A DNA stretch of 64,000 bases from Verrucomicrobiia bacterium (GTDB lineage: Bacteria > Verrucomicrobiota > Verrucomicrobiia > Limisphaerales > DASXHY01), in assembly GCA_035629175.1 (NCBI GenBank), contig DASPIL010000058.1, positions 1-64,000 of the forward strand, in the 5' to 3' direction. How positions within the stretch are numbered: the first letter of the stretch is position 1; each line of letters opens with the position of its first letter. Below the pieces are notes generated by a model. It was not told the origin of the DNA. It made no database searches and saw nothing but the letters and a program-made list of their open reading frames with translations. Shown one piece after another: positions 51,452 through 56,338 of this stretch. A program made the translations under genes and the position numbers.

Positions 51452-54400
51452 TCAACGCTGAAGCGGCCTGAAGGCACGCGCTCCGGCAAGCCAGGCAGGA
51501 TCGGGCAGTGCATAAGGCCGGAATGTTTCGAGGTATCCCTCGCGATCGTTGTAAAACAACGCGCGATGCATTCCAAGGGTTCCCGCGTCGGGCTCATCAA
51601 TCAGCGCCGCCGAATCGCTTGCGCTCATCTGGAACAATACACGCATCGAAAATTCGCTGAGCGTTTTCCGCCCAATGTAACGGCTCACGTTGTTGTAGGT
51701 GTCGCAGCTCGCGATGATATGAATACCGCGGGCGGAACCTTCCGTAATCAGGCTTTGCAGCACGGCCGCCGGCTGCACCGCATCATCGGTGCTGGACGAA
51801 AAACCGAACTCATCCTCCGGCCGCAGTTTGCGGAAATTCTGCAATCCCTGGATCAACACGTAGGTGTCAGGTCCCGCCGACGATTCCTCCCGCGCTTTGA
51901 ATTCTTCGGCGAGGCGCTTCATGGCGCCGGCAAGCTCGCCCGGCCGCACCCGCTGAACGTCGGCCGAAAGCATCTGTGCCGCTCGATCCAGAAAATCGCC
52001 TGCTGCACCTGAGCCTTGCCCCGGACTTTCGAGGACCACAAACCGAACGTCACCGGCGGGATACTGCGCCGCCAGCGCGATCAAACTGGTCCCCAGCATG
52101 ATTGATGTGCTTTCCTCGCTTTGTCCCACAATCAGCAAATGGCTGCCGCTTTGTCGTTGGAACACAGCCTCAGTTGGGCCTTTGATGGAATTCGGCGCAC
52201 CGAGCCACACCCGCGCGGAAGCAGGCGCAGCCGCGGGCGGCAGCTCCAGTGCGCGCTGCAGCAGAATGTTGTCGCGGATGTCAGCGGCCGCATTCCCTTC
52301 GAACACGAAGGGGCCGGGATGCTTGACGGCGTCCCGCGCGGCGCGCTCCCGCACCATGATCAGGTAACGTTCCCGCTCCTCTTCCGAGAGCCACACCGCC
52401 TGGAACGGGCTGTTGCCATCAATCGCTCCTGCGGCGTCGTTGTAGATTCCTTCGCCGGGACGCGACAACAGCCGGGGCGCAGGATTGTCCTGGTCCATGA
52501 TCAAATAAGCGTCGGCTTCATTGCACATGAGTGCGATGCGGATCACCATTTGTCCGAGAGTTGCGCGCGCAAGCGTGTAGGCGCCGCCCAGCGTTTGCGA
52601 ACCGAGAATCACGTGAATGCCAAAGGCACGGCCCTGGCGCACGATCCGATCCAGCAACACCGCCGCTCCCTGCGAAACGCGATCCTCCTCCGTGAAAAAT
52701 TCCTGGAACTCATCGATCAGCAGCAGCGACCGCGGCATCGGCTCCTTGCCACCACTGCGCCTGTAACCCGCCAGATCCTGCACCCCAAGCGTGCGAAACA
52801 GATCACCCCGCCGCCGTAATTCGTCGTCGACCCGCTGCAGCACACTCAATCCAAACTGGCGGTCACTCTCGATGGCCACGACGCGCGCATGCGGCAGGCG
52901 ATGCGTTGCGTATCCCTTGAATTCAACGCCTTTTTTGAAATCAACGAGATAAAACTCGACCTCTTCCGGCCGGCACCACAGCGCCAGGTTGGTAATGATG
53001 ATATGAAACAGCGTCGATTTGCCTGAGCCCGTCTTGCCCGCGATCAACGCGTGCTGGCGCGTGCCGCGGCCGATCTCCAGCCATTGCAGCTTCGTCGCGC
53101 CTGAACGTCCGATTGCGACACGCAATTCCTCCGCGGTCTCGCGGCTCCAGATTTCCGGTTCCGGCGGGGCAACGTGCGAGAAAGGAACCTCAACTCGATT
53201 CGATCCACGCCCGCTTTCTCCCACCTGATGCAGAAAACGCGTGGCGACTTCCGCCGGAGGAGGTTCATCGAGCACGAGGCGCGTTCCAGGGCGTTTGGTT
53301 CCCGCGATCGCAAATCCCCCATCGGCTGCGACCAATTCGACGCTGTTCTTCCGCAGCTCATCGGCCACAAACCCCTGCGGCAGCGGCTGGCGCTGGTCCC
53401 AATGGATGAGCGTGTAAACCCCGCACCGTGCGCCATTGCTCACGATGTTGATCAGGCGCCGCAGCGCGGTGTCGCTGAAGTTGACGGGAAAATCCGCGAT
53501 GACCAGGAAATGATATTTCTCAGCGATGCTGCCGGCCTGCGCGTTGTATTCGGTGATCGTCGGATATTCATTGCGAAGGTACATCTGGATGACCTTCTCC
53601 ATGTGCTCGTTCAATTCAGCCAGTTTTTCCTCGAGGTGATTGGATTGGGTCCAGATGCGGCTGTTGATGTGGCTTTCCTCGTAGTCGGCCAGGTGCATAA
53701 GCCCCGCGAAACTCTGGCCGAGTCCAACGGGATCGAAAATTGTGAAGCTCAATTTGCCGGGAGGAGTGGCAGCCAGCAGCCGGAAAATAATGCTGTTGAT
53801 GAGCGTGCGCGCCGGCGCGGCATCCCCCGTGGTCCTGACCAGCAACGATCCCGCATCGGGGTAAGTCAGCAACAGCGGCACAGCCAGATTTTCGGCAGGG
53901 GGTGCAAGCCGCGAATCCTGGGGCACACGATCCGTCAACTGTGGAATTGCCAGGTGCAACTCACCGAATCGCGCCGCATTGATAAAATGGTTGGGGGGAT
54001 CCCACTGAGCCCAGGAATCATCCTGCCAGCTGGGAAACAGTTGCTGCGCCTCCGCGGCATTCCGGGAGAGCGTCTCGAAGATGGGCCAGACATGCTGTTT
54101 CCATTCGCCAGCCAGCGCCGAGAATTTCGCGTGCCGATCCGCTTCGCGTTGCGCTTCGCGGGCCTGATGATCCGCCTCGAGCCCTAGCCTGGCTTCCTCG
54201 CCCTCACGTTCAAGCCGTTCAATGTGCGCCGGATGCTCCAATTCAATCCGCTGCAGCCTGCGTTGAAAAACCGCCTCATTCTTTTGCGTGACACGTTGAG
54301 CTTGTTCATCAATGCGGCGGGGGCGCTCTCCGAGCAGGTCGATGCCTTCCTTGACCGCTTTTTTCCATTCCTGATTCAATGCCTGCTTCGCCGCCTCGAA

Positions 54401-55327
54401 CTCTGCATGTATGCGCGCTTGCTCCTGCGCGCTGCGCGCGTGCGCCTGGGCAGCGGCCGCGCTTAGCAATTGCTGGATCGTCGCGAGATCGGACGCCAGC
54501 ATCTTGGCGGTCGGATTGATTTTACTCGTCGCCGTCAAGCGCCCGAGCAACAGCAGAATCCCGGCGGCCACAAGGCCAATCCCGATTGCCCGCCATGGAC
54601 CGCCCGCAGGCAATTGGGCTGCAACAGGCGAAAGCATCACAACACCTGCGATGAACAGGAATGCGGACACGCCGGCAGGAAAGAAGCGAAACCATTTCGG
54701 CAGAGCGGCCGAGCTCAAATCCTCCAGGCGCCGTGACGCATCCGCGTGCGCTTGAGCCGCCTTTTCGAGCATTTCATCGGGCGAGGCGGCGGCGACAGAT
54801 GGGACGGGATGTTCGCGCGACAGCATGCGGGTAATCTTCCCGTAGCCGCTGAAGGCAAATCGAGTCGACGTGGCCAGTTGCGCGAGCCATTGCTGGGCTT
54901 CGATGAGCCGGCCGTTAAATGCCGCGTCGTCTGCTGCGAGCGCGGCGAGTTCAGCATCCCGCCGTTTCTCGGCATTCAGGGTGCCTTCCTGCACTTTGTA
55001 TTTCCGGCGCCCTTCCACTTCATGAATGGCATCCAGAGCCCGGCGACGGCTTTCCATGTGGCCCCGGTTGATCCGGGCCTTCCGTTGTTCAAAGCGCTGC
55101 TGCAATCCTTCCATTGCATGCTGCGAGTTCAACTCCGCCTGCGCTAGCATCTGGCTCCGACGCGCCAATTCGGCCTCGCGCGCGGTAGTGAACGCATGCT
55201 GGTCAGCCGCTGTGCGCGTGCGGAACTCTGCGAGGAGGCGTTGCTCGCGCGCGGCGAATTCCTGCATCGCAGCCACCAGCTGGTCGATCAGCGCCAGCGT
55301 TTCATTTGTGCCTGGAAGCTTACTCAC
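51452..55327 (-). CDS. Membrane FtsK/SpoIIIE ATPase with EccC/EssC-like architecture
   Basis: 1291 residues. Residues 10-150 are a long charged coiled coil. Two membrane helices sit at about 211-235 (KWFRFFPAGVSAFLFIAGVV) and 244-263. A second coiled coil runs to about 420. Three ATPase-like units follow: a degenerate one (about 480-650, no Walker A), a complete one with LIAGKTGSGKSTLF (Walker A near 764) and SLLLIDEFQEFF (Walker B near 868-873), and a degenerate third one (LLIVGQSEESTSIMLG, near 1090). Two membrane helices plus three FtsK-type domains is the plan of the T7SS motor EccC/EssC. No DNA-translocase gamma domain is seen. Last gene of the WXG100 operon; its start overlaps the previous gene by 8 bases. 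Confidence 0.9.
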   Translation of the reverse strand: MSKLPGTNETLALIDQLVAAMQEFAAREQRLLAEFRTRTAADQHAFTTAREAELARRSQMLAQAELNSQHAMEGLQQRFEQRKARINRGHMESRRRALDAIHEVEGRRKYKVQEGTLNAEKRRDAELAALAADDAAFNGRLIEAQQWLAQLATSTRFAFSGYGKITRMLSREHPVPSVAAASPDEMLEKAAQAHADASRRLEDLSSAALPKWFRFFPAGVSAFLFIAGVVMLSPVAAQLPAGGPWRAIGIGLVAAGILLLLGRLTATSKINPTAKMLASDLATIQQLLSAAAAQAHARSAQEQARIHAEFEAAKQALNQEWKKAVKEGIDLLGERPRRIDEQAQRVTQKNEAVFQRRLQRIELEHPAHIERLEREGEEARLGLEADHQAREAQREADRHAKFSALAGEWKQHVWPIFETLSRNAAEAQQLFPSWQDDSWAQWDPPNHFINAARFGELHLAIPQLTDRVPQDSRLAPPAENLAVPLLLTYPDAGSLLVRTTGDAAPARTLINSIIFRLLAATPPGKLSFTIFDPVGLGQSFAGLMHLADYEESHINSRIWTQSNHLEEKLAELNEHMEKVIQMYLRNEYPTITEYNAQAGSIAEKYHFLVIADFPVNFSDTALRRLINIVSNGARCGVYTLIHWDQRQPLPQGFVADELRKNSVELVAADGGFAIAGTKRPGTRLVLDEPPPAEVATRFLHQVGESGRGSNRVEVPFSHVAPPEPEIWSRETAEELRVAIGRSGATKLQWLEIGRGTRQHALIAGKTGSGKSTLFHIIITNLALWCRPEEVEFYLVDFKKGVEFKGYATHRLPHARVVAIESDRQFGLSVLQRVDDELRRRGDLFRTLGVQDLAGYRRSGGKEPMPRSLLLIDEFQEFFTEEDRVSQGAAVLLDRIVRQGRAFGIHVILGSQTLGGAYTLARATLGQMVIRIALMCNEADAYLIMDQDNPAPRLLSRPGEGIYNDAAGAIDGNSPFQAVWLSEEERERYLIMVRERAARDAVKHPGPFVFEGNAAADIRDNILLQRALELPPAAAPASARVWLGAPNSIKGPTEAVFQRQSGSHLLIVGQSEESTSIMLGTSLIALAAQYPAGDVRFVVLESPGQGSGAAGDFLDRAAQMLSADVQRVRPGELAGAMKRLAEEFKAREESSAGPDTYVLIQGLQNFRKLRPEDEFGFSSSTDDAVQPAAVLQSLITEGSARGIHIIASCDTYNNVSRYIGRKTLSEFSMRVLFQMSASDSAALIDEPDAGTLGMHRALFYNDREGYLETFRPYALPDPAWLAGARAFRPLQR

Positions 55328-55532
55328 AGTCTTTTCTCACTTTTGCCAGCAGGTCATCGACTTTCTCCATCGCAGTAATCGTTCGGTCAACGCTGATGAA
55401 CAGTTCCTGCATGTAATCCTTCTCGAACTCGAGCGCCTTTGCGTCCCGCCACGCTTCGCGCGTCTCGTGCCATTGCATCCACAAATCCTTCGTCAACGTG
55501 GCAAGGCGGCTCTTGGACCCCGCAAGGCTCAT
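55320..55532 (-). CDS. Small coiled-coil protein of the WXG100-FtsK operon
   Basis: 70 residues. It has a short basic start (MSLAGSKSRLATLTKDLWMQ) and one long helix (DAKALEFEKDYMQELFISVD ... MEKVDDLLAKVRKDCE). No known motif is seen. It overlaps both neighbours (4 bases upstream, 8 downstream), a sign of strict co-translation. A small helical partner that docks WXG100-type substrates or the ATPase would fit. It has one or two Trp in the first 30 residues (LWMQWHETREAW), but not a clear WxG turn. Confidence 0.75.
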   Translation of the reverse strand: MSLAGSKSRLATLTKDLWMQWHETREAWRDAKALEFEKDYMQELFISVDRTITAMEKVDDLLAKVRKDCE

Positions 55533-56065
55533 GGCTGCGCCTCCCCGTCTGACGGCTCGGACTGGGCCGCGGGCGCCACTGCGTTCGTTCCGGAAACGAC
55601 ATCACGGTAGGCCGCGAGGGCGCGGCTGATCTGTTCGAGATGGGCGACGGCTCGCGGCAGGTCATTGTTGAGGACATGCTGCAGCCCGTTCGTCTGGCGC
55701 ACCAGCGGCTCAGCGATATGCTCCAGTTCGCGATCCCATTTTTTCAAAAGGCTGAGTTTATTCTCCGCTTCCTGGACACTGTCGCGCGCCCTGCGAACCG
55801 CCATCTGCTGACCGGCGGTGGCTTCATCCATCAATGAAAGGCGCGCCGACGAAAGCTCGCTCATGGCAGCATCGAGTTTTTTTCGGCGACGACGCAATTC
55901 GTCGCTCCAGTTCTTGCGCTGATCTCCCTGGATCCATTGGCGGGTGCGGCTGACCTCGCCGGAAACCTCCTCCACGAGAGCGCGGGTTTTCGTGGCATAC
56001 ACAATCAGGTGCGCGCGAAATTTATCGATCGCTTCAACCGATGTGACCTGGGCTCGTTCGGCCAT
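55529..56065 (-). CDS. Helical coiled-coil protein of the WXG100-FtsK operon
   Basis: 178 residues, nearly all helical. Residues about 10-130 are a coiled-coil bundle (VEAIDKFRAHLIVYATKTRA, RRRRKKLDAAMSELSSARLS, VQEAENKLSLLKKWDRELEH). WIQGDQRKNWSDEL holds a W-x-x-G-like turn between two helices, which is reminiscent of the ESX-type helical hairpin but longer. The last 20 residues (NAVAPAAQSEPSDGEAQP) are flexible. It begins directly after the stop of the WXG100 gene (TAA-ATG) and ends overlapping the next start. It may be a chaperone or a second exported substrate. Confidence 0.75.
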   Translation of the reverse strand: MAERAQVTSVEAIDKFRAHLIVYATKTRALVEEVSGEVSRTRQWIQGDQRKNWSDELRRRRKKLDAAMSELSSARLSLMDEATAGQQMAVRRARDSVQEAENKLSLLKKWDRELEHIAEPLVRQTNGLQHVLNNDLPRAVAHLEQISRALAAYRDVVSGTNAVAPAAQSEPSDGEAQP

Positions 56066-56338
56066 TTAACGCTGGTTCAAGTACTCCTCAATGCGCTGTG
56101 CCTTGCGGAGAAGGTAGGGGGTGTGGGCCTTTGACAGTTCCACGAATTTTTTCAACGCCTTCATCGTCTGCCGAAATTCCTCCGAGAACTTTTCGTGTTC
56201 CTGGTCCTGCCAGCTGTCGCCGAGCGCGGTGAAACGCGCCTGCAGCAATGTCAGCCGGCCTTCCAAATCGCTGTTGAACCGCTGAAGGTCATCGGCAAAC
56301 CGCCGGACCTTTTCCGGATCCATCATCGCCTGAGCCAT
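56066..56338 (-). CDS. WXG100-like (ESAT-6 superfamily) protein
   Basis: 90 residues with no signal peptide. Two helices are joined by LGDSWQDQEHEKFSEEF; Trp43 fits the WXG turn, with Asp in place of Gly. Size, the position of the Trp, and the amphipathic helices (KVRRFADDLQRFNSDLEGRL and KALKKFVELSKAHTPYLLR) match WXG100. The usual C-terminal YxxxD/E secretion motif is not clear. WXG100 proteins are exported as dimers by T7SS motors of the FtsK type. AAAGGA five bases before the ATG is a strong ribosome binding site, the best in the operon, so it is probably the most translated product. It opens the four-gene operon. Confidence 0.85.
   Translation of the reverse strand: MAQAMMDPEKVRRFADDLQRFNSDLEGRLTLLQARFTALGDSWQDQEHEKFSEEFRQTMKALKKFVELSKAHTPYLLRKAQRIEEYLNQR

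What the first reader, a model, noticed from the sequence alone, without database searches (positions are those of the whole stretch)
51452..56338. Minimal type VII-like system: WXG100, two coiled-coil proteins and an EccC/EssC-like motor in one overlapping operon
Four genes with 0, 4 and 8-base junctions encode a 90-residue WXG100-like protein, two small coiled-coil proteins and a 1291-residue FtsK/SpoIIIE protein with two membrane helices and three ATPase-like units. FtsK-type motors with WXG100 substrates define T7SS in monoderms; here the host looks diderm. No EccB, D, E, EsaA, EssB, mycosin or LXG toxin gene is nearby, so the whole apparatus may be these four parts. In the motor only the middle ATPase keeps Walker A, which differs from EccC, where D1 has its own role.
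Basis: partly seen in the sequence, partly recalled or inferred. Interest (0 to 1): 0.85.

Follow-up and report, generated by a model that had tools for sequence, protein, structure and literature searches.

The report
Four-gene WXG100–EssC-like membrane motor unit
A strictly conserved four-gene unit in Verrucomicrobiota pairs two small WXG100-type hairpin proteins and a coiled-coil protein with a membrane-anchored ATPase related to type VII secretion motors; the kind was noted in passing in 2012, but this stand-alone, membrane-anchored form has not been tested and could be the smallest such machine in bacteria with an outer membrane.

Summary
The four genes are real and as described. The 90-aa protein is a WXG100 protein (Pfam, above cut-off). 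The 1291-aa protein has three RecA-like units, only the middle one active, and is closer to EccC/EssC than to FtsK. Two corrections. The 70-aa protein is not just a coiled coil: it is a second, shortened WXG100 relative (invariant W-x-D, same spacing as the first). And one canonical ATPase does not set the motor apart from EccC: published EccC also has one canonical unit (D1), and the middle unit matches D1 best. The same four genes, in order, occur in 70 of 80 named loci and in about half of the families of the host's order; nothing else travels with them, and the motor tracks FtsK divergence, so inheritance there is mainly vertical. Not a new kind: Zhang et al. 2012 noted 'solo WXG' proteins with a three-unit ATPase, only the middle one active, in Verrucomicrobia and others; relatives sit in TerY-P/CoCoNuT operons. 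New here: two membrane helices, a coiled coil without the nuclease of its relatives, a stand-alone vertical unit. Export is the best guess but unproven; it cannot be filed as T7SSb, nor on this evidence as T7SSa.

The parts
56066..56338 (-). Gene 1: WXG100 protein, 90 aa, motif W43-x-D45
   Evidence: PF06013 E 1.4e-11, 44.9 bits, cut-off 27.3; best solved relative HP0062 of H. pylori, 3fx7, E 6.6e-10
55529..56065 (-). Gene 2: 178-aa coiled-coil protein, one long helical hairpin (helices 2-77 and 80-160) plus a low-confidence P/A/S-rich tail; possible cargo or carrier
   Evidence: AF2 model pLDDT 91; HMM match in this slot in 72 of 80 loci
55320..55532 (-).
   Evidence: its HMM finds 46 of 55 gene-1 proteins at E<0.01, decoy ORFs none; bridging protein L145:9395-9664 hits both HMMs, 4e-21 and 2e-5
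51452..55327 (-). Gene 4: 1291-aa FtsK/HerA-superfamily motor, EccC/EssC-like
   Evidence: EccCa TIGR03924 108.8 bits vs FtsK NF007615 30.2 bits
54533..54676 (-). Two predicted membrane helices of the motor (residues 218-265), between two coiled-coil-like stretches
   Evidence: Kyte-Doolittle scan; two helices in 56 of 75 named relatives, one in 10, none in 9; none in the TerY-type motors L144 and L145
53204..53977 (-). Motor unit 1 (residues about 451-708), degenerate RecA-like unit
   Evidence: AF2 model; aligns with EccC5 DUF domain 8rin, Z 15.3, rmsd 3.8, 221 residues
52376..53128 (-). Motor unit 2 (residues about 734-984), the ATPase unit with intact motifs
   Evidence: PF01580 E 7e-33; hhalign to EccC D1 4e-31 vs D2 6e-16
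53015..53038 (-). Walker A GKTGSGKS (residues 764-771)
   Evidence: kept in 55 of 55 relatives as G[KR]TGSGKS[TN]
52706..52726 (-). Walker B LLLIDEF (residues 868-874)
51500..52306 (-). Motor unit 3 (residues about 1008-1276), degenerate RecA-like unit
   Evidence: AF2 model; EccC D3 structures 6j17 Z 22.1 and 6jd5 Z 21.7; hhalign D2 9e-10, D3 7e-10

Best explanation
It is a stand-alone, membrane-anchored member of the 'solo WXG100 plus EssC/YueA-like ATPase with only the middle unit active' family. The motor is held in the inner membrane by two helices and probably forms a hexamer around a pore. Its middle, D1-like unit burns ATP. The two WXG100-type hairpins (genes 1 and 3) pair as the targeting partner, and the hairpin coiled coil (gene 2) is carried with them, or is the cargo, across the inner membrane. 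Shown here: membership by sequence, three units with one carrying intact motifs, two predicted membrane helices, two WXG100-type proteins, conserved four-gene linkage, mainly vertical inheritance in the order. Inferred: hexamer, pairing, export, direction and cargo. How anything would pass the outer membrane is unknown.
For: WXG100 above the Pfam cut-off. Second WXG100 relative. Motor closer to EccC than FtsK by HMM, PDB sequence search and Foldseek, and apart from FtsK/SspH in the tree at 99/96. Membrane helices. 70 of 80 loci with all four genes, no other family in more than 4 of 33 neighbourhoods. Mantel r 0.62 of motor vs FtsK distance, 1 of 5000 permutations as high. In relatives the protein in gene 2's slot carries C-terminal domains: nuclease-like in L144 and L145, another in Rhodococcus L152, which fits a carrier.
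Against: No secretion data. None of the known accessory membrane parts of T7SSb was found. No effector, toxin or immunity gene, and no other WXG100 protein in the genome, so no obvious payload. Relatives without membrane helices sit in TerY-P operons, where an intracellular role is as likely. Gene 2's homology to the coil-nuclease proteins is by slot and shape only: the profile comparison was not significant. VIA-align ranks FtsK motors above EccC for the middle unit, so fold alone does not separate them.
Confidence: 0.5

Rival explanations
1. Not a secretion system: an inner-membrane or cytoplasmic ATPase scaffold in which the WXG100 pair and the coiled coil are fixed subunits that sense or remodel something inside the cell (stress, envelope or defence function), like the TerY-P and CoCoNuT relatives.
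For: Close motor relatives lie in TerY-P operons (L144, L145) and beside TerD genes on a Rhodococcus plasmid. Bell et al. (PMC11090510) note that a different mechanism is likely for soluble forms. There is no payload gene, and gene 1 is very conserved (79% mean column identity), unlike an effector.
Against: The TerY-linked motors lack membrane helices, which this form has. WXG100 proteins tied to EccC/EssC motors are exported in the monoderms and mycobacteria where this was tested (established knowledge of T7SS).
Confidence: 0.33
2. A DNA pump or DNA-linked machine: the FtsK-like motor moves DNA, with the helical proteins as adaptors.
For: The middle unit aligns best in three dimensions with FtsK motors (Z 28.9, 270 residues, 2.5 A). 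Some relatives have nuclease-like partners.
Against: Sequence favours EccC. FtsK and SspH group together and apart from it. The genome has its own FtsK elsewhere.
Confidence: 0.08
3. A mobile T7SS-like element, as proposed for this family in 2012, present here by recent transfer.
For: Patchy presence: 31 of 57 other families of the order, 21 of 387 genomes in a phylum-wide sample. Different flanking genes at nearly every locus. A plasmid-borne relative in Rhodococcus.
Against: Motor divergence tracks FtsK divergence across 21 families, r 0.62. No other gene family, mobile or not, is conserved with the unit.
Confidence: 0.09

Closest known systems
'Solo WXG' with distinct YueA-like ATPase (Zhang et al. 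2012, PMC3482391, Table 1 footnote 6)
   Same: WXG100 protein plus an ATPase with three HerA/FtsK units of which only the middle is active; Verrucomicrobia named among hosts
   Different: Called mobile there; here mainly vertical in the order. The footnote gives no gene set, membrane helices or second WXG100 protein
WXG100/EssC-like ATPase operon inside Type III-A CoCoNuT and TerY-P systems (PMC11090510; Anantharaman 2012, not readable here)
   Same: Three units with the central one active, N-terminal coiled coil, two WXG100 proteins of which one is atypical, a coiled-coil protein in the operon
   Different: Those motors lack membrane helices and the coiled coil is fused to a nuclease; here two helices, no nuclease, no TerY, kinase or McrBC partners
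H. pylori HP0062-HP0066 (PMC3397514, PMC4978471)
   Same: WXG100-like hairpin (WRD motif), best solved match of gene 1; FtsK-type ATPase in the cluster; diderm host
   Different: Only gene 1 was compared here; whether HP0066 groups with this motor was not tested
T7SSa (ESX, EccC) and T7SSb (Ess/Yuk, EssC)
   Same: WXG100 plus EccC/EssC-family motor with a degenerate unit before and after a canonical D1-like unit
   Different: No EssB/YukC, EsaB/YukD or LXG in the genome; score far below EccC/EssC equivalog cut-offs; long coiled coils around the membrane helices; probably one unit fewer than EccC

Membership tests
Solo WXG100 + EssC/YueA-like ATPase, middle unit active (2012 family) | WXG100 protein encoded with the ATPase | tested here: met
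   PF06013 E 1.4e-11; same operon in 70 of 80 loci
Solo WXG100 + EssC/YueA-like ATPase, middle unit active (2012 family) | Three FtsK/HerA units, only the middle with Walker A and B | tested here: met
   AF2 model and 55-row alignment
Solo WXG100 + EssC/YueA-like ATPase, middle unit active (2012 family) | Groups with TerY-P-linked motors rather than FtsK | tested here: met
   One group with L144, L145, L152, L153 at 99/99
CoCoNuT/TerY-P-linked form | No membrane helices in the motor | tested here: not met
   Two helices in most relatives of the window's motor, none in L144 and L145
CoCoNuT/TerY-P-linked form | Coiled coil fused to a nuclease; TerY, kinase or McrBC genes nearby | tested here: not met
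   Gene 2 is a helical hairpin with a low-confidence tail; none of these is a conserved neighbour
T7SSb | EssB/YukC and EsaB/YukD | tested here: not met
   No match in the genome, control rang in B. subtilis
T7SSa | EccB and EccD | tested here: inconclusive
   No hit, but controls were silent
T7SSa/T7SSb | Motor above EccCa, EccCb or EssC equivalog cut-off | tested here: not met
   108.8 vs 509, 90.8 vs 346, 82.4 vs 778 bits
T7SS in the broad sense | ATPase-dependent export of the WXG100 protein | not testable with these tools
   Needs an experiment
Chromosome-partitioning FtsK | Groups with FtsK | tested here: not met
   FtsK plus SspH form their own group at 99/96; FtsK model 30 bits only

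The most novel reading that the evidence does not exclude
A complete type VII-like export machine of diderm bacteria reduced to four proteins: one membrane-anchored motor, a heterodimer of a long and a short WXG100 protein, and one coiled-coil cargo, serving a vertically inherited physiological role rather than toxin delivery.
Probability: 0.3. Interest if true: 0.8.

Novelty: new variant of a known kind. Interest (0 to 1): 0.5.

Why it matters
T7SS work treats WXG100 export as mainly a trait of Actinomycetota and Bacillota that needs several membrane partners. A four-gene unit with a membrane-anchored EccC-like motor in diderms would show the least that such a machine needs, and would link T7SS to the TerY-P/CoCoNuT stress and defence operons. 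Isolates carrying it (Verrucomicrobium sp. BvORR106, L093; Spartobacteria bacterium LR76, L106) make the question testable.

Tried and rejected
Gene 3 against gene 1 by hhalign gave only 0.3% probability, though in the right register; the HMM test with decoys and bridging proteins settled it. Gene 2 against gene 1, gene 3 and the coil of the nuclease fusions was not significant. Gene 2's fold search gave only generic coiled coils, best Z 11.8. Gene 3 found nothing in the PDB by sequence. PADLOC hits of the motor are shared FtsK/HerA ATPase. Unit 1 could not be assigned by sequence to DUF or D1; by structure it resembles EccC5 DUF (Z 15.3), while the three units can also be laid on TcEccC D1-D2-D3 (4nh0, rmsd 14.3), so the register DUF-D1-D2 is favoured, not proven. 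A first Mantel test failed because at least one FtsK ORF was picked wrongly; it was redone. A first unit-3 profile was contaminated with unit-2 rows; it was redone. Anantharaman 2012 is not held.

Full report
The observation. Four genes lie on the - strand from 56338 to 51452 with junctions of 0, -4 and -8 bases. The first is a WXG100 protein: PF06013 E 1.4e-11, 44.9 bits against a cut-off of 27.3, and the only PF06013 match in the genome. The last is an FtsK/HerA-superfamily motor: PF01580 E 7e-33; EccCa model 108.8 bits, EccCb 90.8, EssC 82.4, FtsK 30.2, all below their equivalog cut-offs.

Conservation. A protein search of 57 other genomes, each from another family of the same order, finds the motor at roughly 45-65% identity in 31, plus a fragment in one more. 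In their neighbourhoods the four families occur together in the same order; the next most common family occurs in only 4 of 33 loci. Among the best 80 named relatives of a scan of 84,980 species, all four genes are found in 70; most of the rest end at contig borders. L083 and L140 appear to lack genes 1 and 2, unexplained. A phylum-wide sample has gene 1 in 21 of 387 genomes. Motor distances track FtsK distances across 21 families (Mantel r 0.62, 1 of 5000 permutations as high), so inheritance in this order is mainly vertical.

Gene 3. Alignment of 59 relatives shows invariant W28, D30, F36 and C69. Gene 1 has W43, D45, F51 and F55 invariant; the spacing W-x-D-x5-F is the same. An HMM of gene 3 finds 46 of 55 gene-1 proteins at E<0.01 (best 1.3e-4) and none of 3000 decoy ORFs below 0.1. 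A protein from a second, TerY-linked locus hits the gene-1 HMM at 4e-21 and the gene-3 HMM at 2e-5 and is itself a WXG100 protein by Pfam. So the unit has two WXG100-type proteins, one long and one short, both W-x-D. Gene 1's best solved relative is HP0062 of H. pylori, which also has WRD (PMC3397514).

Motor. The AF2 model of residues 425-1291 (pLDDT 85, pTM 0.75) has three RecA-like units. Walker A is kept in the middle unit in 55 of 55 relatives; units 1 and 3 have none. Profile comparison with seven EccC sequences puts the middle unit closest to D1 (4e-31) over D2 (6e-16) and D3 (9e-8); unit 3 is equally like D2 and D3 (about 1e-9); unit 1 is undecided. In structure, unit 1 resembles the EccC5 DUF domain (8rin, Z 15.3, 221 residues, 3.8 A) and unit 3 resembles D3 (Z about 22). 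Published EccC has a degenerate DUF, a canonical D1, and degenerate D2 and D3 (PMC11154593). The simplest reading is DUF-like, D1-like, D2/D3-like, so one active unit is like EccC rather than unlike it. Bell et al. call the active unit of relatives 'D2' (PMC11090510); the register is not settled. Two membrane helices at residues 218-265 recur in most relatives and are missing in the two TerY-linked motors. In a tree of the active unit the window's motor groups with TerY-linked, Rhodococcus and faecal-contig motors at 99/99, apart from FtsK/SspH (99/96) and from EccC D1, D2 and D3; its place among these is not resolved.

Gene 2. A single long helical hairpin with a low-confidence tail. In the TerY-linked loci L144 and L145 the gene in the same slot has a coiled coil followed by a domain with a D...ExK-like pattern (IAFEVKAG, IAIEVKCG), as described for CoCoNuT operons; Pfam recognises nothing there. 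In Rhodococcus the slot holds a coil with another C-terminal domain. Relatedness of gene 2 to these is inferred from slot and shape only. This would make gene 2 the stripped-down form of a carrier with a variable end.

Prior knowledge. Zhang et al. [quoted passage not shown] The H. pylori pan-genome paper calls WXG plus FtsK a minimal T7SS set (PMC4978471). So the kind is known; the membrane-anchored, nuclease-free, stand-alone and vertical four-gene form is the new part. No held paper found describes it in Verrucomicrobiota beyond that footnote, but subscription papers were not searched.

Verdict. Real, conserved, related to T7SS, new variant of a known kind. Export is the best single guess (about one in two); a non-secreting scaffold is the main rival.

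Noticed in passing
L145:8666-19902: TerY-P operon in a verrucomicrobial genome that also has the stand-alone unit (L146): WXG100, coil-nuclease-like protein, soluble EssC-like motor, a Card1-like CARF endonuclease, VWA, PP2C and kinase genes. The CARF nuclease suggests cyclic-oligonucleotide signalling.
   Followed up: partly
L152:5727-12308 (NZ_CP126457.1): Conjugative Rhodococcus plasmid with a related motor, a coil protein, a 73-aa WRD protein and an 87-aa WXG100 protein next to TerD genes; the motor comes first there, unlike in the window.
   Followed up: partly
L153:2037-7371 (MT836827.1): Unverified 'Bacteriophage sp.' record from faeces that looks bacterial: ThiF-like E1 enzyme, EssC-like motor with an extra degenerate unit, and a WXG-like protein with an HExxH-type motif.
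   Followed up: no
window:55320-55327: The conserved C-terminal Asp-Cys-Glu of gene 3 is encoded by bases that overlap the motor's GTG start; both protein and start codon may constrain it. It stays conserved in Prosthecobacter copies that run three residues longer.
   Followed up: no
window:43713-50490: Neighbouring respiratory cluster: NrfD-like membrane protein, 4Fe-4S proteins, c-type haem proteins and an 800-aa molybdopterin oxidoreductase (by eye from the translations, apart from the 4Fe-4S Pfam hit).
   Followed up: no
window:56528-61261: 1577-aa secreted-looking protein: rhamnogalacturonan lyase family 11 with FG-GAP, fn3 and autotransporter-type PATR repeats.
   Followed up: no
L083, L140: Two loci keep motor and gene 3 but no recognisable gene 1 or gene 2 upstream; not explained.
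   Followed up: partly
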